From: Maylandia zebra
Taxonomy: Eukaryota; Chordata; Actinopteri; Cichliformes; Cichlidae
Assembly: GCF_041146795.1 (NCBI RefSeq)
Contig: NC_135168.1
Location: 14,560,131 to 14,624,130, forward strand
DNA: 64,000 nucleotides
Reading direction: 5' to 3'
This document shows positions 23,341 through 34,289 of this stretch, one piece after another; position 1 is the first letter of the stretch, and every line of letters begins with the position of its first letter. Made by a program: the position numbers and the translations under genes. The notes under the pieces are model-generated. The model was not told the origin of the DNA and searched no databases. It saw nothing but the letters and a program-made list of their open reading frames with translations.

Positions 23341-25940
23341 CAGTAAATAAATACTTTAAATTATGCAAGCTGTTGAGACAAAGTGTACTAAGTTTTTAGT
23401 TTTTCACTGAGATACCTGTAAAATTGTTTGTTCTTTACACAAGATTATTGTATTTTAACCGTGTTATTAATGGTGATCTATTGGATTTTGTTTAGATTTT
23501 TACCTATTAGGCTCCTTTGTGTCATTTGTTATATTGTATTCACTTCATTCAGCTTTTCTACTTTATTTAAGTTATTTTGTTATAGATTGTGTTTAATGTT
23601 TTAGCTACAGTAAAACAGGGGTTTTGCAACTTTTGCATGAAGTGTCCTATCTAAGCTTATTAATATTAATTTTTGGGACTCACAGTGGTTTTGGCTCTTA
23701 ATACCTCACATACTTCACTGATCATATGCGCTGAGGAGTGCACAGCCCTCTCAACACTTACGTTTAAAGACTCGCTCTCTAATCGGCTCCCTATTTATGG
23801 TTCATAAGGATGTTTTAGATGCTGTATTTGTCATACGATGAGAGCTGATACTCAGACTTTTTTCTATATAACCAGCAGCAACATGTAAAAACCCTTCTGG
23901 GTAGAATTCATCGAAGCAGTAATCCCCACGTCTCTGCAAACATCTTACTTACTAAACAACAACCCTTTCACAGAAAAATAAACAAATTCTTACATTCACA
24001 CACAACCAAGCCTTCATACTGTTAAGTACACAGAGGAAGGGGGGGGGGGGGTTGTTTCACCCTTATTAGCTTGGCACAGAGTTATCTCTTCAGACCTTAA
24101 ACACACTACAGAATAGCCGCTGTTATCACACAAACCTGCACACACATACATAGACACACACAGAAAATTACACACAGGAAGTCTGTGATATGGGGCCAAA
24201 AATACATCACAAACCTTGCATCACCTTCCTCTCAGTGTGTCCACTCTTCCACTGTGTCCCAAAGCTGGGTGGAGGTGTGTGTGTGTGCGTACGGGAGGTG
24301 TGGCATGCAGTAGATAATGGGCCAATTGTAAGTGATTAGAGTTGGAGCCAACCAATCAGCACAGCCTGGTACTGGACTGTGGCCAATGGCAAGATGTTCA
24401 GCGCAGCTGGGGGAGGGCGCTCTCGCTCACACACAGGAAAAGAAATGTGGCCGAGCCTTTGCACAGTACCTCCTATAATTCAGTGCATGTGTGTAAATAT
24501 GTTTTTACAATTTTGTTTCATTTTCTTTTTCAAATTGATTACATACAATTTATTTTTAGATGGACGTCCTTAAACAAAACCCAGAGTTGGTTTCCAAACA
24601 GACTAATGTGAACAAAATGAATAACTAACAGCTTTTTCTCCATCAGTGTCATTTGTTTACACTATGCCACAAACATTTTTTCATCTTTATCCTTTTTTAT
24701 CTCTTTCTGCCTTTTCTGTAAATGTAGCAACGTGTTATTAATGTTTAAATATGAGTCACTCCTGTGCACCACATATAACTCGTTGTCATCATCACCAGCC
24801 TTTACTGTAGTGTATAATTTTCCAGACTCCAGCTCATCATCTTGAGTTTGTTATTTTGTCCTGCAAACTTCAAAATATCCTTTACGCTGATTTAAAACAA
24901 TGAAAGCAGCCGAATTCTGGCATTTGGAAAGATAAAAATGTTGTTTTCAGACTGATATCTCATCCTGATTATTGTAGGAGTAGCAAATTTTCTGTTCTTC
25001 CACCAGCTTCAATAATTGTTTAAGCATTATGCAGTTATACAAGAACTCTGGGCCAGGCTTTTTGTCCACAGCTTTGTGCTTCAGCTCTGAGCTTTTCTAG
25101 ACTTTTACAAAGTCTGCATGTGTGAGACAATTCATGTAATTACGCAGTAAATTCACAGTAAACCACGGGGCATCAAGAGTCTGCCTTCTTGCATGCTCTA
25201 CCCTGGCAGCTGCCTCACCTGAATATTTACAGTCGTCCTTTTGAGGCCAACATGTAAGTAAGAGAACTGCTCCTGCCTGGTTGATGCATGTAAATTGCTT
25301 CTCCTCTACCAAAGAGACACAAGGGTAAAGTCTAGAAATGTTCAGGGATGCAGTGCATGTTGAAAGCAGCTTAAGTGTCTCCAGTGTCATCCATTCGTTC
25401 TGCTTTTAGCCCAAAACCTCGTTTTTTCTCTTATCCCTGTTGGTTTTCATTTAACTGCATTTCTATTGTATATATAAATAAATGTGATGAGTGACTAAAA
25501 AGGATCAAACTAAGCTCTGCTTGAAAGGGATGATTCAATAAAACAAGCCTAGAGAAACCAATAAACACAATAAGAGGTTATTAAATCACACATTATTATT
25601 TTTATTTGGATGGAAGATTTGGTGCCAGGTGTTCATGTGAAATATGGTTTTAATACTGCGCGCTGTTTACATCAAAGCTGTTAAATGCATCATCTGTTTG
25701 TCTTCCTCAACATCTTTGTTATGACTTTGGCTCGTGTTCCCACGTGCCACTAATTTTTCCATTAATTTTTTTTGAGTTTCTTTATTTGAAGCATTTTTCT
25801 TTATCTGGGCTTTTAAACCATTTAAAAACTAAGATCCATGTAAATATAGCCACTATTTATTTACTGATTTCATTACAGAAATATCTCACAGTAACGTTGG
25901 GTGCTTATGGTTGTTAAAGCTATTTTTCTCTATTATTGCT

Positions 25941-26620
25941 TGTTGTGATATTTTGATACCATGGTAGCATTTACAGGATATTGTTTTATAGTGATATTAT
26001 ACAGGAAAACTGTTACTCAATAAGGCCCATTTACTAGTTGTTTTTCTCTTTCTCTGTGACCCAAGAATTAATGTGTAAGAATCACAGGATGGTACCTCAA
26101 GGTCGAAAACACCACAGAGATCACTTCCTTACTCCCATCCTCCCTTCTTTATCTCCTAGAAAAGAGCTTGTTAAAGGCCAGGTGGTTTGTTTCAGAATTC
26201 ACTAATGAAAGAACTCTGTATTCTGTGTCTAGGAGTGTATTTTGCTGGAATGATCATAAATTGTAGCTGAACTGATAAACTACACAAAGGATACTTCTTT
26301 GCTCAGAAGGCAGGAAGACGCTTCCTTATTTGGTCTGTACCGGTTTGAACTGAGAATCTGCTGACACACGAACCTTTTTTTCCTCTATATAAACTGTTGT
26401 GTACTGAATAAACCTTTGAGTTGATTTTGGAAGAGCAACCTGAAGCAGTTTCTGTGTCATTTTGTTCTCCCAAGCTACTCCCGGCGCTGTAACTAACCTG
26501 CTGAACGGCATACCTGAGCTTACTTTGAATAATAAATTTTATACAGAACTCTGCTTATCGGTGCTCACGCCTTGGAGGAAACCCGATCCATGGAGAAACC
26601 CGGGATGGAGATTTCTTTCA
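25941..26620 (+). repeat. 5' LTR
   Basis: 680 bp, starts TGTTGTGATA and ends TTTCTTTCA. It contains a TATATAAA box at 26386-26393 and AATAAA at 26407-26412, the expected promoter and polyadenylation layout of a retroviral LTR. Nearly identical to 33516-34196. Confidence 0.95.
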
Positions 26621-26623
26621 ATT

Positions 26624-26641
26624 TGGTGTCAGAAGTGGGAT
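26624..26641 (+). other. Primer binding site, tRNA-Leu type
   Basis: TGGTGTCAGAAGTGGGAT begins three bases after the 5' LTR. It is complementary to the 3' end of a vertebrate leucine tRNA plus CCA. Confidence 0.85.
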
Positions 26642-26981
26642 CGGCTGACGAAGGTAAATACACGTCTTTAATATTTATATGGGACTGTATTATACCTCTC
26701 TCAGTGATCGATCTATAATGAAACGGGATATGCTGACGAAGTTTCACTTAGTGATCCAGAGAGATACACTGACGACTTCTTTAGTCCCCGAATAAAGTAA
26801 ATTAAAAGCAGAAAGACACAGGAAGTTGCCTGTTGTATTGCGAGAAGTTGCTCGTTAAGTGAGAAATTGCTCACCCAAACAAAAATTGCTAGCAATAAAT
26901 TTAAAGTAACCTCAGCTGTGCCGCAGCAAAATACTAACATAAATCCTTCAAGCGTGTAAACCCCTCTGGAAATCACTGAAC
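26642..26981 (+). other. Retroviral leader with possible splice donor
   Basis: Untranslated leader before gag. AAG/GTAAAT at 26651-26659 could be the major splice donor. GCTGACGAAG occurs at 26644 and again at 26732, with a related CACTGACGAC at 26768. The leader would be expected to carry the packaging signal, but none can be proved here. Confidence 0.5.
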
Positions 26982-29057
26982 ATGGGTCAGAATAATTCAA
27001 AGACCACAGACAGGTCCGATAAAAAATCGAAATTACCTGTAAAACCAAAAAATAATAAAATAAAATATAAAATCACAAATAACGGCTCAGTACAACTCCC
27101 ACTTCCGGTGACGTGTAACCTACGTCCGCGAATCGGTGAAGACTTCCATGATTACGTATCCAGAACATGTGGAAGTGCTTATGTGACTGACTTTGTTTAC
27201 AATTTAAGAACTGTAAGTTCAATGCATTTTAATTTATTTCCGGAGCCCTATCCCGAACGATTATCGCCAGAAAACAGGTCAGTAGAAATGTTGAATATCA
27301 TTTGTGATAAGAAAAGTAGTCTGCTTAAACAGTCCTGTAGAAAATATATGATAGAATGCCGCGACGTGATACATCGAATGTTACCGCTATGGAAAAAGGG
27401 ACCGGAACCAGGTGTAGATGCTTTAACATCAAATAAAACTAGTGCAGGCTCTAGCATAGAAAATAAATCTACCGCAGGAAAAGCTAGTCTTGCATGCTCA
27501 GCCGTTCAGCCTACAGCCCCACCCCCTTACGAAGATGAGACCGAATTAATAGTCGCTGTAGCGGCTGCACGTAAACAATGTCAGCATTCTGATCCAACCA
27601 GCTTAAAAGAAAGTGACAAAAAACCTGAATCACATGCAACGGATCTTAGCCACCTAATTGAACAAGATCAGGAAAAACAATATATACGCCGCGAGGAAGA
27701 ATTAGCAGAACATAGAAAAAGAGAAAAACTTTTGAAAGAAGAATGTGAGGAACTTATGAAAAACAATTTAGACGACTATGAAGAAAAACTTTTGCATCAG
27801 GCAGTGTCCACGATAGACACCCACATGAAACGCCACGATATCGTAGCTAGGGGTTTAGAGGTAGCTAAAGAAATACCTGTTACCCGAACTTTAATAAAGA
27901 CTTATCTAAAAGGAAAAAAGGAAAAACAAAGCCAGAATGACAAAGGTCCTCACGCCAACACTCGCGGTAGTAAACAAACAGAACCAAAATCTAGTGACGT
28001 CAATGACACTTACCCCTTTATGATAATAGGAGATCAGTGTTGTATTCAGCCCCCTAAAATCTCAGAATTAGTGGCAACTATTAAAGAGCTTCCCGATCCT
28101 CTTAAAAATCCTACAGCCTTTGTCTCTGCATTACAGAAAAGTACCAGATATCACCATTTGGGTGGTCCAGATTACAGGTACATATTGTGTCAATGCATTC
28201 CTGGAGTAACCGAGTCACAACTCATAGAAGAGATAGGTGAATTAGACCCAAAGCATGATAAAGCATCCACAACTGCAGAGTTTTTGTGGGTAAATAATGA
28301 CAAAATCACCGATTTCTTTAAGAATCTAAAGAAATTCCTGCTAACAATGTCCAGAGACAAAATTGACTTAAATGCAGTAACTATGTGTAAACAGAATCCT
28401 GATGAATCTATCCTAGTATTCATAAAACGCTTTATGCACTGTTGGACTAACGAGGCATGCATGCCAGAGGATGGTAATGATCAGATTTTCATTACTACCT
28501 TTTTGAACAATATCCACCCTGAATGCTCTCAGTTGCTAAAAGTGACAGCTACTGATAATCTCTACGAACTGAGTAAAGATGCTTTCTTAAAGCTTGTACA
28601 ACTGAAGGCCAGTGCAGACCTTTTTCCTACTACCACAAAAGCTAAAAGTGTTAAGATGATGTTGAATTTTGATGTTGAAGGCTCAGAAGAAAGTGAGAAA
28701 CTAATGTATGCAGGATCATCCGCTCCAGCACAGCCAGGAAGTTTCAGAGGACGGAAAGATAAGAGTAGAGATATGTGTTTTTGCTGTGGGAAGATAGGAC
28801 ATTGGTCTAGGGAGTGTCGATTTGCAGCTTCCAACAGGGCACACGCGCCTCGACCACAGAACGCAGTACAAGTTCCTGCCACTAGGCGTCAGCGGAGCTC
28901 TTCCAGTCAAGGTAACTGGCAACCACAAGAAGCACGCAATAATGGCTCCACATCTAGGCAGCCTTACAACCCGAATTTTAACCCACAAGGTAGACAAGCT
29001 AGAGGTGCAAATTTAGCTCAGTTTTCCAGCAGCCGCAGACACCCAGAGCAAAAATGA
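26982..29057 (+). CDS. gag: Endogenous retroviral Gag polyprotein, intact 691-codon frame
   Basis: Structural polyprotein that would assemble the viral core at the plasma membrane. It begins MGQNNSK, a likely N-myristoylation signal, in the start context GAACATGG. Overlapping late-budding motifs PTAP (177-180) and PPPY (180-183) recruit ESCRT and NEDD4-type factors in known retroviruses. A charged, probably coiled-coil segment spans about 225-275. A capsid-like region covers about 345-575. One CCHC zinc knuckle lies at Cys599-Cys602-His607-Cys612, followed by a basic, Gln/Ser/Arg-rich tail. No stop or frameshift interrupts it, unlike pol just downstream. The spacing to the downstream protease remnant suggests readthrough or frameshift expression in the ancestor. 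Whether it is expressed is unknown. Confidence 0.93.
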   Translation: MGQNNSKTTDRSDKKSKLPVKPKNNKIKYKITNNGSVQLPLPVTCNLRPRIGEDFHDYVSRTCGSAYVTDFVYNLRTVSSMHFNLFPEPYPERLSPENRSVEMLNIICDKKSSLLKQSCRKYMIECRDVIHRMLPLWKKGPEPGVDALTSNKTSAGSSIENKSTAGKASLACSAVQPTAPPPYEDETELIVAVAAARKQCQHSDPTSLKESDKKPESHATDLSHLIEQDQEKQYIRREEELAEHRKREKLLKEECEELMKNNLDDYEEKLLHQAVSTIDTHMKRHDIVARGLEVAKEIPVTRTLIKTYLKGKKEKQSQNDKGPHANTRGSKQTEPKSSDVNDTYPFMIIGDQCCIQPPKISELVATIKELPDPLKNPTAFVSALQKSTRYHHLGGPDYRYILCQCIPGVTESQLIEEIGELDPKHDKASTTAEFLWVNNDKITDFFKNLKKFLLTMSRDKIDLNAVTMCKQNPDESILVFIKRFMHCWTNEACMPEDGNDQIFITTFLNNIHPECSQLLKVTATDNLYELSKDAFLKLVQLKASADLFPTTTKAKSVKMMLNFDVEGSEESEKLMYAGSSAPAQPGSFRGRKDKSRDMCFCCGKIGHWSRECRFAASNRAHAPRPQNAVQVPATRRQRSSSSQGNWQPQEARNNGSTSRQPYNPNFNPQGRQARGANLAQFSSSRRHPEQK

Positions 29058-29379
29058 ATTTGTGTATTTCATTTAACACAAAGGGTGAAATGTTTGCTGA
29101 CACTGATAACAGCTTATGTTTTTTCTTTGCTATGCACCGACATGATGGAGAAGGAACAGCCTCTGTGTCAGCTGGACGCCTCAGCAGAGAATGAACTCAA
29201 CATCCTTTTTCTGGTATTCCACGTCACACACTGTGCCAAAAAAAAAAAAAACGTGTACAAATATAACAAGCCACACTTTTGTCTCTCTCACACTGTTCAA
29301 CAACATGATAACTGCTCACACCAGTGATTTATTGACTGCACACCTTATCACGCACAGCTGAAAAACAACAAGCCAGTAT
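29058..29379 (+). pseudogene. pol: Protease remnant of pol
   Basis: Just after gag, one frame reads EMFADTDNSL, resembling the protease active-site region with Asp-Thr but without the expected following Gly. The rest of a protease is not recognisable in the 0.3 kb before reverse transcriptase begins. It appears mostly deleted and is out of frame. Confidence 0.5.
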
Positions 29380-30590
29380 ATGTCAAGCAATGTCTCATTT
29401 CTTTCCGAAAAAGCCTCAGCCCTAGATGTCATCATAGGAGATTTATTGACTACAGGAGTAATAAAGCCCACAGTATCTCCATATAACACTCCTGTCAATC
29501 CTGTGCCAAAGCCTAACAAACCTGGCGTATGGCGTTTCATACAAGACTTAAGGCAAATTAATGCAGTCATTATGCCTCTGCCACCTCTCAGACGTTCCCA
29601 GCATATTGACATCTATTCCATCCACAGCTATACATTTTACCGTGGTGGACCTGTGTTCCGCCTTTTTCTCAGTACCTGTGCATGAAGACACACAGCCGTT
29701 ATTTGCATTCACACATAGAAATAAGCAGTACACTTGGACTCGTTTGCCCCAAGGCATGATAGACAGCCCTGCGGCTTTCTCAATGGTGGTCCGTGCTACC
29801 CTGGACAGCTTCACTCCTCCGGAGGGCTGTACTGGATGACCTCCTCCTCTGTGCTCCGAGTGAGGAACTATGTCAAACTGCTACACACATGCTTCTCCAG
29901 CACCTCCAACAGACTGGCCACAAAGCATCTGCAAAGAAAATGCAGTACTGTCAGACTTCTGTTCAATATTTGGGATTTACACTGTCTCACGGAAAACGTT
30001 CCATGACTGCAGACAGGGTCAAAGCTGTGACCTCCGTCCCTCGGCCCACTACACAGAAGGAAATGTTGTCCTTCCTGGGCATGGTGAACTATTGCAGACA
30101 GTGGATACCAGACTGTTCTTTTCATGACCACATTCTGCGTGACTGTTGTAAAAAAGACAAGCCTCCTCGAATACTGTGGTCCACAGAAATGACTGCCTCT
30201 TTCAATTAAAGGGAGTGCTGACCTCCGCCACTCAAAGGTGCTGCCTGTGGATTGTTCAGGGGATGCCGGCCTGCCTGAGGGCGTTAGCAGCTTGCTCTAT
30301 CATGATAAGGGACTGCGAGAAGCTCACACTCTCACATGACACTATTCTACACACCAATCACCAGGTCACGACCATTCTAGCAAACATAACTACACAACAT
30401 ATGCAAATCTCACTATAAAAGCAAACAGCACACCCAATTCGCCAGCACATTTATTGATCCATATGCTGTGTTCTTCTGACCGACAGGATGGCTCAGACAG
30501 GCTTGACGATCATGACTGCATGACACGTATACAGGAATCCACAGCACCACGTCCAGATTTAGAGCAAACACCTATCTCAGACTCAGCCAC
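29340..30590 (+). pseudogene. pol: Broken reverse transcriptase region of pol
   Basis: Recognisable segments appear in several frames: TTGVIKPTVSPYNTPVNPV and WRFIQDLRQIN (29440-29570), then WTRLPQGMIDSPAAF (about 29730-29785) in another frame, then LGFTLSHGKRSMTADRV (29960-30030) in a third. At the catalytic YxDD position (near 29830) the frame changes and the Tyr is lost (VLDD remains). A stop follows at about 30207. The thumb/connection region is partly deleted, with GMPACLRALAACSIMIRDCE at about 30260-30320. At least three frameshifts are needed to follow the domain, so no active enzyme can be made. Confidence 0.85.
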
Positions 30591-31050
30591 GGTTTATGTG
30601 GACGGGTCCTGTTGAAGGCCGAATGACAACTCATTTCTTTGTGGCTATTCAGTGGTAACAGTGCCTGACATCATACTAGAGGCTCGCTCATTACCATTTC
30701 ACTCAGCACAAAAAGCAGAGCTCATGGCTTTAATACGCGCCTGTGAGCTCCATTTGGATAAGCGTGTGACAATTTACACAGACAGCCGCTATGCGTTTGG
30801 CGTCGTACATGACTTTGGCACATTGTGGAGACAAAGAGGATTTAGATCTGCTGACGGAAAATCAATTGCTAAATTCTGATTTTGTTCAAAGATTTTTGCA
30901 GGCTATACAGCTGCCATCGGCCATTGCAGTTGTAAAAACGAAAGGACACAGTACAGCTGACACAGACGAAGCAGCAGGTAATGCTCTAGTAGACGTGACA
31001 GCCAAGGCTGCAGCTGCATCACAGCTCCCACCTCCACAGGAAGTATTATC
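30591..31050 (+). pseudogene. pol: Broken RNase H region of pol
   Basis: Catalytic landmarks are present but split. VYVDGSC at about 30595-30615 is followed at once by a stop. KAELMAL and YTDSRYAFGV (30710-30805) lie in one frame up to a stop at 30877. KGHSTADTDEAAGNALVD (30943-30995) lies in another. The Asp, Glu, Asp and His/Asp positions are visible, but a stop and a frameshift break the domain. Confidence 0.8.
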
Positions 31051-31212
31051 TGTGCCCCTACAGTTGCCACTTGTTACACTCCCAGACTATTTAGAAACAA
31101 ATGTTGATTTAAACTTTATACAAGAGCAAGCCTCTGCATCTGATTACACCTATTGGGAGGATAATGACTGTACCTTAGATGACAGAGATGGCCTATACAA
31201 AATTTTGAGGGT

Positions 31213-32041
31213 TTGATTGCCCTCCCATATTCCCTGATGCCAGTCCTTGTCCGACATTTTCACTGTGTGAGTCATGTCGGACAAAGAGGGGTAATAGGGG
31301 CAATAAAATCAAGATTTGTAATTGAGAAAACATCACATGCAGTAAAAAGCATATTAGCAACCTGTCTAACATGTGCACGAGCTAATGTAGGGAGACCAAA
31401 AGCGAAACATCAGCATTTACCACAACCAGATTTTCCATTTCATACATTATGACTCCATCTGCAGTAACCAAATTATCTCCATTTGAAATAAGACTATTTC
31501 CAACACCATGGTCAGCTTCCAGAGGGGCACCGCTAGTAGAAGGTGATGTATATTGCATTGTCCGACTATGTTCACAATCTGGTAGAAACACTGAATAATA
31601 ACTATCAGAAAGTTTGTCTCTCCCAGCCTCTCCCCTCCACAGTTCCACCAGTGGAGACCAGGAGATGCGTGTTGGTGAAGTCGCTAAAACCAAGGACACT
31701 CTGGGAGGCCGCGCGTGTTCCAGCCCCAGACTGTACTGGCAGTGACGAAGAACCAGCATCCTCACAGACGGACAACCTCAGTGGATTCATGCCAGCAGGG
31801 TTAAGACCAGCCCAACCAGACCATCTCAGGCGTCGGATCAAGCAGACGACGTCTCCGGCGAGCCAACGCCCGGAACCAAAACAAATAAACACACAACAGG
31901 TAGATGACATCTCCGGCGAGCCAGCGCCCGGATCCAATCCACCTACACACACGCAATCACTGATTAACACACAACGTCTGAAAGAGCCACAGCAAGGTAC
32001 TCGAACATCCAGCAGGAATAGAAAGCCGAGAGTACCACAGG
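31213..32041 (+). pseudogene. pol: Integrase remnant lacking the catalytic core
   Basis: The zinc-binding N-terminal part is visible (HFHCVSHVGQRG, then CLTCARANVGRPK, 31255-31400) and stops at 31452. The sequence then passes directly to what looks like the C-terminal side of the core (AVTKLSPFEIRLF) and the C-terminal domain (CVLVKSLKPRTLWEAARV, about 31660-31715). The DDE core between them is missing. A Pro-rich frame continues to 32049 and overlaps the env start by 8 bases, as pol and env often do. Confidence 0.75.
31848..31963 (+). repeat. Two imperfect tandem copies of a 58-bp unit
   Basis: GACGTCTCCGGCGAGCCAAC at 31848 recurs as GACATCTCCGGCGAGCCAGC at 31906, both followed by GCCCGGA. 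Because 58 is not a multiple of three, the duplication shifts frame within the 3' end of pol. Confidence 0.6.
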
Positions 32042-33343
32042 ATGTCTAATCTGATAAAGCCAGACTCATTCCATCCTGATAATGGAGAAAATGAAATGCC
32101 CATTGTCATCATACGACGCTTATTCTATGTCTCTCGAACCTGGGACCAGGCCAGGAGACGACTGAAGAACTGTTTTTCTTATATATTTAGGTTATTTATC
32201 ATATCTATCGCATTAACCTTAGGATTTTTCTTTGCTATTTTGTATTGTAAACTGCAACCATGTTCACATTTCTGCAGGTCATATTTTGCTGACAATACCT
32301 CATGCTCTACTTTGCGAGACACCTACTTAATACGCTCCTCACAATCAGTAAATAGCAACATAGACGCCACTAATAAACCATTTTATGCGACCTCTAGAGC
32401 AGGAGTCAACTCCTGGTATGAAAATGCCAGAACAGCCGCTCGTGATTTAGGAAACAGTAACTGTTATGTCTGTTCAAAGGGTAATCCAGAACAGGTAATA
32501 GTAGGATACCCCATATACGGTTTCCCCCTCACTGAGGGACTAGAGAAAATCGGCGGAGATAATGCTCTCCTTAAAGACGCTTTACAGTTGACTCTGAGCC
32601 CTCTCGACTGCCTACTTAGACACACACACACACCAACTAACCCTGAGACTCCATTAGGCGAATTATTGAAGTTATCTAATGACACGGCAGGGACCTGCGC
32701 CCCAATGAAACGCCCTAAGACTAGGTTAAAGCCCTCACTACCCCTAGGACAGATCCCTTTCCATTTTAATACTAGTATGATATGTCTGCGTAGACTAAAG
32801 TTAACTGGCCCAGACACACACATAGATTATACAAAGGATAACTACACATTTTTCTCTGACTCCCCAGGTGCACGCTGTAATGAGACATGGCTAGCTGTCT
32901 CTGTGGCTGAAGTTTTATCATATCTGGAGGAACACACACACAGTTCAAGTTCGAGCGGAGAATCGATCATTGTTCCCCCAGAAGGTGTATTAAATGACAC
33001 TGAATGGGGGGAGTTAGTTAAATCACACATGGTCACGCGCCTAACTAGAGCAATCCCTAACGCTTATTGGATGTGCAATAATACCCTTAGATTAGCTTTA
33101 CCTGTTAATTGGACCGGTACCTGTGGTCTAGTGACCGTTGATGTATGCTGTACTTTCATTCCCAATAATACCGCCCCTAACGGTTCATTCACACAAGCTA
33201 TGAATAGACTTGAAGCATTGAAGATAGAACTAATTGCCAATACAGGTCACGGTCAGTGGCTAGATAAGTGGCTACAGGACACGTTTGGAAAATGGAAGGA
33301 ACTAATTGTAGCCTTTGTAACCGTTGCCGCATGTTTTCGATAA
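32042..33343 (+). CDS. env: Endogenous retroviral Env-like protein, 433 codons, internally shortened and C-terminally cut
   Basis: Envelope glycoproteins mediate receptor binding and fusion. The frame has a long hydrophobic leader or anchor at about 49-70, several NxS/T sites and surface-unit-like cysteines. A surface-type motif, WMCNNTLRLALPVNWTGTC, at 343-361 runs straight into a Cys-x7-Cys-Cys and IPNNTAP stretch (361-379) that belongs to the transmembrane subunit in related viruses. No furin-type cleavage site, fusion peptide or heptad-repeat region lies between them, so an in-frame deletion is likely. The frame ends early in the membrane-spanning region (421-433). Hydrophobic codons continue in another frame, indicating a frameshift. 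Unlikely to be a working entry protein; it could still be expressed. Confidence 0.8.
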   Translation: MSNLIKPDSFHPDNGENEMPIVIIRRLFYVSRTWDQARRRLKNCFSYIFRLFIISIALTLGFFFAILYCKLQPCSHFCRSYFADNTSCSTLRDTYLIRSSQSVNSNIDATNKPFYATSRAGVNSWYENARTAARDLGNSNCYVCSKGNPEQVIVGYPIYGFPLTEGLEKIGGDNALLKDALQLTLSPLDCLLRHTHTPTNPETPLGELLKLSNDTAGTCAPMKRPKTRLKPSLPLGQIPFHFNTSMICLRRLKLTGPDTHIDYTKDNYTFFSDSPGARCNETWLAVSVAEVLSYLEEHTHSSSSSGESIIVPPEGVLNDTEWGELVKSHMVTRLTRAIPNAYWMCNNTLRLALPVNWTGTCGLVTVDVCCTFIPNNTAPNGSFTQAMNRLEALKIELIANTGHGQWLDKWLQDTFGKWKELIVAFVTVAACFR

Positions 33344-33502
33344 TTATTGTCTGTTGTGTGATACCATGTATACGCTCTCAGGATTTTTGATATTAAGCTT
33401 GCTCGAAGGACCAGTTACATTTATGATTTGTTTTATGTTTATGATTTGTCTTTATATTATGTTATTACATTCTGTCTTTATACTATGTTATCATTTCATG
33501 AT

Positions 33503-33514
33503 AAAAGGAGGGAA
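33503..33514 (+). other. Polypurine tract
   Basis: AAAAGGAGGGAA lies directly before the 3' LTR, in the position where plus-strand synthesis is primed. Confidence 0.85.
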
Positions 33515-33515
33515 C

Positions 33516-34196
33516 TGTTGTGATATTTTGATACCATGGTAGCATTTACAGGATATTGTTTTATAGTGATATTATACAGGAAAACTGTTACTCAATAAGG
33601 CCCATTTACTAGTTGTTTTTCTCTTTCTCTGTGACCCAAGAATTAATGTGTAAGAATCACAGGATGGTACCTCAAGGTCGAAAACACCACAGAGATCACT
33701 TCCTTACTCCCATCCTCCCTTCTTTATCTCCTAGAAAAGAGCTTGTTAAAGGCCAGGTGGTTTGTTTCAGAATTCACTAATGAAAGAACTCTGTATTCTA
33801 TGTCTAGGAGTGTATTTTGCTGGAATGATCATAAATTGTAGCTGAACTGATAAACTACACAAAGGATACTTCTTTGCTCAGAAGGCAGGAAGACGTTTCC
33901 TTATTTGGTCTGTACCGGTTTGAACTGAGAACATGCTGACACACGAACCTTTTTTTTCCTCTATATAAACTGTTGTGTACTGAATAAACCTTTGAGTTGA
34001 TTTTGGAAGAGCAACCTGAAGCAGTTTCTGTGTCATTTTGTTCTCCCAAGCTACTCCCGGCGCTGTAACTAACCTGCTGAACGGCATACCTGAGCTTACT
34101 TTGAATAATAAATTTTATACAGAACTCTGCTTATCGGTGCTCACGCCTTGGAGGAAACCCGATCCATGGAGAAACCCGGGACGGAGATTTCTTTCA
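33516..34196 (+). repeat. 3' LTR
   Basis: 681 bp, TGTTGTGATA...TTTCTTTCA. TATATAAA lies at 33962-33969 and AATAAA at 33983-33988. Differences from the 5' LTR: five substitutions (two adjacent to one another at GAATCTG/GAACATG) and one extra T in a T run. Confidence 0.95.
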
Positions 34197-34289
34197 TTGC
34201 TCATGACATTCAAGGCTGTGAAATGACAAAATATGCCTTTTTCTTTTTTACATTATTCTCACAAGTCTCAACACTTAGAGGACAATAAT

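What the first reader, a model, noticed from the sequence alone, without database searches (positions are those of the whole stretch)
25941..34196. Very young LTRs around a badly broken pol: a likely mobilised defective retrovirus
Seen: the two LTRs differ by five substitutions plus one 1-base indel in 680 bp, and the 5-bp target duplication is perfect. Also seen: pol has several frameshifts, stops, an altered active site and internal deletions. Inference: so much damage is unlikely to have built up after so recent an insertion. The genome was probably already defective when copied, with reverse transcriptase and integrase supplied in trans. Gag stays open while pol decays, as expected for a non-autonomous lineage riding on a helper.
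Basis: partly seen in the sequence, partly recalled or inferred. Interest (0 to 1): 0.75.

Follow-up and report, generated by a model that had tools for sequence, protein, structure and literature searches.

The report
Mobilised defective retrovirus in cichlid fish
A recently inserted fish provirus with broken enzymes shares its damage with sister copies elsewhere in the genome, so it was already broken when it jumped and probably borrowed the enzymes of more complete relatives; this is a good fish example of a known kind of genomic parasite.

Summary
In detail: young LTRs, perfect 5-bp duplication, badly damaged pol. The window's integrase-core deletion is found in 12 of 40 scored copies (letters read in 6). 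The 14-bp deletion over the RT YVDD box is identical in 8 of those 12. The protease deletion is in 6 of 6 read there. Four such copies have LTR pairs with distinct, perfect duplications. Substitutions private to this locus are 18 of 4888 sites, 0.37%, as its LTR age predicts; the large lesions are inherited. Copies spaced for a full integrase core exist (12 of 40), but each of the three complete-structure copies read has some damage, so no undamaged helper was identified. One correction: gag is not a lineage trait. Five of five sisters read lost most of it, and this gag is 97-99% like two of three complete-structure copies, so recombination probably brought it back. Lesions recombine, and a second defective class (16 of 40 by spacing) apparently lacks the integrase glutamate. 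Closest known: C/D-type ERVK[2-1-LTR] of cattle.

The parts
25936..25940 (.). 5' target-site duplication TTGCT
25941..26620 (+). 5' LTR (TG...CA), closest to defective copy C19 among the proviruses read
26624..26640 (+). primer-binding site, tRNA-Leu-like (assignment from recall)
   Evidence: sequence
26985..29057 (+). gag, open 690 aa from ATG; middle part like copies of complete structure, 3' part like defective copy C19; tail altered by the protease deletion
29050..29053 (+). junction of the ~440-bp deletion that removes the protease; shared by C17, C19, C11, C1 and (by contiguous match) C7b
29326..29329 (+). junction of a 167-bp deletion shared with C19, C11, C1
29362..30209 (+). RT remnants in several frames (RVT_1 hits in two)
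29588..29589 (+). 5-bp RT deletion shared with C17, C19, C11, C1 and C16_8
29832..29833 (+). 14-bp deletion over the YVDD box; exact in 8 of 12 IN-core-less copies and in one copy of the second class
30229..30230 (+). 121-bp deletion, in 10 of the 11 IN-core-less copies scorable there, absent from C19
30402..30403 (+). 46-bp deletion shared with six other IN-core-less copies, absent from C17, C19, C11, C1, C7b
30580..31213 (+). RNase H remnant split over two frames; stop at 30613 not seen in the 8 other copies covering it
31183..31449 (+). integrase zinc-binding (H2C2) remnant
31448..31449 (+). junction of the 391-bp deletion that removes the integrase catalytic core; 12 of 40 scored copies
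31982..33343 (+). env, 453 aa stop to stop, with a 369-bp deletion in the TM half at 33135 shared with C17 and C19
33503..33515 (+). polypurine tract before the 3' LTR
   Evidence: sequence
33516..34196 (+). 3' LTR
34197..34201 (.). 3' target-site duplication TTGCT

Best explanation
This is a non-autonomous, class I (gamma-like) endogenous retrovirus of a fish, very probably an African cichlid. It belongs to a defective lineage that had lost protease, the RT active-site box and the integrase core before this copy was made. Shown: the same breakpoints occur in other proviruses with their own target duplications; copies of complete structure exist and are about as young; lesions occur in combinations that point to recombination. 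Inferred: the RNA of the defective element was packaged in particles of more complete relatives, copied by their reverse transcriptase with template switching between co-packaged RNAs, and inserted by their integrase. In that process this copy, or its parent, picked up most of gag from a complete-type RNA.
For: Protease deletion in window, C17, C19, C11, C1, C7b and not in C18, C53, C3. RT 14-bp deletion exact in 8 of 12 IN-core-less copies. IN-core deletion in 12 of 40 scored copies, letters read in 6. Target duplications TTGCT, CTGGC, ATTAC, AACTC for window, C19, C17, C11; no flank homology of the window to 38 LTR loci. LTR-pair K2P 0.0074, 0.0045, 0.0074, 0.0058 for those four and 0.0087, 0.0015, 0.0060 for C18, C53, C3. 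RT dS between the 12 IN-core-less copies 0.079, ten times or more the LTR divergence of the four dated ones. Private substitutions 18 of 4888 sites = 0.37% = half of the LTR divergence. Pol pieces of C3 match RVP, RVT_1, RNase H, H2C2 and the integrase core, and MLVIN_C below its curated cut-off. Six pairs of lesions (36-bp indel left out) show all four combinations, states scored by hand. Full LTRs and exact 5-bp duplications point to a retroviral integrase.
Against: No expression or transposition was observed. No undamaged helper was identified: C18 has a gag stop, a stop in pol and a 585-bp insertion in pol, C53 lacks about 254 bp of 5' gag, C3 has a 14-bp gag deletion; helper products might come from several loci, from unread copies or from an exogenous virus. 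Only 40 of 125 candidates were scored; 15 copies were read at the lesions (fewer at some), plus parts of six copies of the second class. RT dN/dS among defective copies is 0.28 (0.07 among the three others), well below 1, so exchange with functional copies or fairly recent damage must be assumed. C19 lacks the 121-bp deletion; C3_50, C3_54 and C6_0.1 lack the 14-bp one. Ectopic gene conversion could move some lesions.
Confidence: 0.9

Rival explanations
1. The damage happened after insertion at this locus (ordinary decay).
For: One stop codon (30613) and two 1-nt indels are private.
Against: Each pol deletion of 4 bp or more that I compared occurs at the same junction in at least one other copy; private substitutions are 18 of 4888.
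Confidence: 0.02
2. Lesions spread between existing loci by segmental duplication or ectopic gene conversion, not by retroviral copying.
For: Mosaic patterns could also come from conversion tracts; one of the five LTR differences is polymorphic in the family.
Against: No flank homology of the window to 38 LTR loci, distinct target duplications, lesions spread from 29050 to 33135, and a young LTR pair in each of the seven proviruses dated.
Confidence: 0.07
3. The defective RNAs were moved by LINE machinery, as reported for HERV-W.
For: Would not need the element's own enzymes.
Against: Two complete LTRs with TG...CA ends and exact 5-bp duplications at four defective copies.
Confidence: 0.01
4. 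Gag here is the ancestral gag of the defective lineage, and the sisters lost it later (no recapture).
For: Sister gag deletions have several different borders, so loss happened more than once. No IN-core-less relative with gag was read for comparison; the gag search did not complete.
Against: Gag 27330-28590 is 97.1-99.1% identical to C18 and C3 (94.3-95.9% to C53), while the gag 3' end, IN C-terminal part and TM2 of this locus are at most 94.0, 90.6 and 89.8% identical to C18, C53 and C3 but 98.4-99.6% to C19. Diagnostic sites switch side between 27121 and 27170 and are on the defective side again from 28719.
Confidence: 0.25

Closest known systems
[quoted passage not shown] abstract and outline, and sections 11 and 20, read)
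   Same: Young family in which defective members outnumber complete ones and recombine with them by the four-haplotype test; trans-complementation inferred.
   Different: Betaretrovirus-like, with the central segment swapped; here gamma-like, and defective members keep a degraded pol with several deletions. Mobilisation in cattle was measured; here it is inferred, and no undamaged copy was identified.
MusD/ETn, IAP I-delta-1 and KoRV-A/RecKoRV pairs (named in section 20 of PMC10924933)
   Same: Non-autonomous retroviral copies complemented in trans by related elements.
   Different: Mammalian hosts; their own papers were not read.
Copies of complete structure of the same family (C18, C53, C3 in this genome)
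   Same: LTRs 91.6-93.3% alike; gag and pol pieces 88.6-99.2% alike.
   Different: They keep the protease segment, RT box and integrase core, though each has damage elsewhere.
Uncharacterised proteins of Simochromis diagramma, Maylandia zebra and Astatotilapia calliptera
   Same: 94, 87, 65 and 60% identical to the gag of this locus over 75, 51, 82 and 73% of it (4 proteins).
   Different: Nothing is known of their proviruses from this search.

Membership tests
Class I (gamma-like) retrovirus | RT/RNase H closest to gammaretroviruses | tested here: met
   Pol piece of C3: best PDB matches 4mh8, 5dmq, 4hkq (RT/RNase H p80), E down to 2.3e-74; that these are MLV/XMRV enzymes is from recall. Not tested on the window's own fragments.
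Class I (gamma-like) retrovirus | gag and pol in one frame separated by a stop | tested here: met
   3 of 3 copies of complete structure; destroyed in this locus by the protease deletion
Class I (gamma-like) retrovirus | gamma-type Env | tested here: inconclusive
   TLV_coat hit in C3; no Pfam hit for the env of this locus
Non-autonomous (D-type) endogenous retrovirus | several insertions share the same gene-inactivating lesions | tested here: met
Non-autonomous (D-type) endogenous retrovirus | each insertion has its own target duplication and full LTRs | tested here: met
   4 of the 6 IN-core-less copies whose ends were read; C1 had no 3' LTR found, C7b has a truncated one; ends of the other 6 were not read
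Non-autonomous (D-type) endogenous retrovirus | complete relatives sharing LTR and leader exist | tested here: inconclusive
   12 of 40 scored copies have the spacing of a full integrase core; of the three copies of complete structure read (two of them among the 12), each has some damage
Non-autonomous (D-type) endogenous retrovirus | mobilisation by enzymes supplied in trans shown experimentally | not testable with these tools
   needs expression and insertion data

The most novel reading that the evidence does not exclude
The family is a recombining swarm of parasites rather than one defective lineage: two differently broken pol types (integrase core gone; catalytic glutamate gone together with another broken RT) exchange lesions with each other and with copies of complete structure, and partial members such as this locus regain single genes (gag), so that Gag, Pol and Env might be supplied by different loci and no single intact helper is needed.
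Probability: 0.3. Interest if true: 0.6.

Novelty: new member of a known kind. Interest (0 to 1): 0.42.

Why it matters
It is a well-resolved fish case in which non-autonomous retroviral copies outnumber those with a full-length integrase core: 28 of 40 scored copies have the spacing of one of two integrase-core deletions (letters seen for 6 and 3 of them). Because the lesions are unambiguous markers, the family could be used to study how parasites of retroviruses arise and recombine, and related cichlid genomes could show which insertions are polymorphic.

Tried and rejected
Decay after insertion, LINE copying and segmental duplication or conversion were considered and rejected or judged unlikely (see rivals). 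I first took the 46-bp deletion at 30402 as private because none of the first eight relatives has it; all six further copies read share it, so that reading was dropped. The 36-bp indel at 31988 also shows four combinations, but nothing rests on it. Site runs against C19 alone mix switches with private changes of C19; the counts used are those where C17 and C19 agree. A PDB search with the env of this locus gave nothing convincing (best E 0.074). Tandem repeats and tRNA genes in the window: none at the settings used (the tRNA search is bacterial). Paper searches (listings and starts of abstracts, plus passages of PMC10435555) listed no description of a cichlid or other teleost family of this kind among the titles shown; that says nothing beyond those six searches.
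Full report
Observation. The window lies at G000:C2:14560131-14624130 of a 962-Mb genome. The LTRs at 25941-26620 and 33516-34196 differ by five substitutions and one 1-nt indel and are flanked by TTGCT on both sides. Gag is one open frame (690 aa from 26985); RT, RNase H and the integrase zinc finger lie in fragments in different frames, and the ten frames searched gave no protease or integrase-core match. The gag matches four uncharacterised proteins: Simochromis diagramma 94%, Maylandia zebra 87%, Astatotilapia calliptera 65 and 60%. These are African cichlids (recall), so the host very probably is one; the species is not known to me.

Relatives in the same genome. An LTR search scored 40 of 593 candidates. 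Of these 40, 17 are attached to proviral sequence and 23 are solo LTRs, 22 of them with a perfect 5-bp duplication. After the window's own two LTRs the six best hits (L003-L008, 97-99%) are all solo LTRs with six different duplications. Eight other proviruses were read over much of their length: C17, C19, C11, C1 and C7b (defective) and C18, C53 and C3 (complete structure). Left out: two LTRs (C7:65000175, C20:29705952) whose interior matches the window only next to the LTR.

Lesion sharing. Against C18, C53 and C3, the window and the five defective copies lack the ~440-bp protease segment. The 391-bp integrase core and 5 bp at 31645 are missing in the same six, present in C53 and C3 and in C18. 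The 14-bp deletion over the YVDD box is identical in window, C17, C19, C11 and C1; C7b lacks 16 bp at the same place. The 5-bp deletion at 29588 is shared with C17, C19, C11, C1; the 167-bp one with C19, C11, C1 (C17 has its own, C7b none); the 121-bp one with C17, C11, C1, C7b but not C19; 4 bp at 30204 and 22 bp near 29267 with C17 alone among the copies compared; the 369-bp TM deletion and 9 bp at 31489 with C17 and C19. Private to the window among the copies covering them are a stop (30613), a 1-nt insertion near 29402 (C1 has one of its own close by) and a 1-nt deletion at 31723.

Wider count. A search with 30580-31660 scored 40 of 125 candidates. By the spacing of the matching parts, 12 copies have the window's integrase-core junction, 16 have 278-281 nt there and 12 have 381-391 nt. 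C53 and C3 are among the last 12; C18 is not among the 40. In three copies of the second class the letters show a 111-bp deletion which by position includes the catalytic glutamate codon; for the other 13 it is inferred from spacing. RT pieces of the other six IN-core-less copies show the exact 14-bp deletion in three and other small deletions at or just before the box in three, the 121-bp deletion in five (the sixth has a larger, overlapping one) and the 46-bp deletion in six of six. Of six copies of the second class read at RT, one (C16_8) carries the window's 14-bp and 5-bp deletions; the other five share one different deletion at the box, four of them with further shared gaps.

Ages. LTR-pair K2P is 0.0074 here, 0.0045, 0.0074 and 0.0058 for C19, C17, C11, and 0.0087, 0.0015, 0.0060 for C18, C53, C3. 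Substitutions private to this locus are 18 of 4888 interior sites covered by at least five of the eight other copies, 0.37%, half of the LTR divergence; the middle of gag, which the five defective copies lack, is not covered by this count. IN-core-less copies differ by dS 0.079 in RT, so the shared lesions look much older than the insertions, unless recombination imported that diversity. One of the five LTR differences is at a polymorphic site, so the LTR age may be slightly overstated.

Recombination. Six pairs of lesions, the 36-bp indel left out, occur in all four combinations, for example the 14-bp and 46-bp deletions (states scored by hand). At sites where C17 and C19 agree against C18 and C3, the window sides with C17/C19 3 to 0 in the 5' LTR, 9 to 0 in 3' gag, 11 to 0 in 29052-29327, 21 to 0 in RT (29330-29910), 15 to 1 in the 3' TM part and 7 to 0 in the 3' LTR. 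It is mixed elsewhere: 6 to 4 in 5' gag, 1 to 3 in 29911-30402, 3 to 2, 5 to 2 and 10 to 2 along 30404-31800, 7 to 5 and 6 to 4 in two parts of env; the leader has no such site. In 5' gag the order is five defective-side sites (27073-27121), four of the other side (27170-27229), one defective (27248). Gag 27330-28590 has no counterpart in the five defective copies and is 98.5-99.1% (first half) and 97.1-98.8% (second half) identical to C18 and C3, 94.3-95.9% to C53. I read gag as taken over from a complete-type RNA. Against this: the site at 27248, the differing borders of the sisters' gag deletions, and the lack of any IN-core-less relative with gag.

Mechanism. Full LTRs, TG...CA ends and exact 5-bp duplications show that a retroviral integrase made the insertions, yet these copies cannot encode its catalytic core. 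Copies of complete structure encode protease, RT, RNase H and integrase domains (C3) and inserted in the same period. But each of the three read is damaged: C18 has a stop in gag, a stop in pol and a 585-bp insertion, C53 lacks about 254 bp of 5' gag, C3 lacks 14 bp of gag. The helper may be among the copies not read, several copies together, or an exogenous virus. Supply in trans with co-packaging and template switching remains the simplest account; no activity was measured. RT dN/dS of 0.28 between defective copies against 0.07 between the three others fits relaxed constraint with exchange with functional copies.

Comparison. The cattle ERVK[2-1-LTR] family has the same logic: 15% complete and 85% defective elements, recombination by the four-haplotype test, new insertions dominated by defective elements (PMC10924933; abstract and sections 11 and 20 read). 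The case here is a new member of that kind in a fish, with pol eroded by several deletions instead of replaced.

Noticed in passing
L039 (G000:C7:65000000-65009999) and L055 (G000:C20:29705800-29715799): LTRs of this family whose upstream interior matches the window only over the last ~110-130 bp; the same LTR seems to be attached to a different interior.
   Followed up: no
G000:C13:1875559-1876428 and 1881481-1882350: Two copies of the second defective class with equal scores 5.9 kb apart on the same strand, perhaps a tandem provirus sharing an LTR.
   Followed up: no
L011 and L012; L025 and L042: Pairs of solo LTRs on different contigs with the same 5-bp duplication (GTGAC; CTATC); possibly duplicated segments rather than independent insertions.
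   Followed up: no
L032 (C17 copy), between the places matching window 31807 and 31800: About 1.4 kb of extra sequence before env that does not match the window.
   Followed up: no
window 32530-33030: The middle of env matches C18, C53 and C3 over only 11% of its length but is 96.6-98.0% alike in C17, C19, C11 and C7b; two env types seem to circulate in the family.
   Followed up: partly
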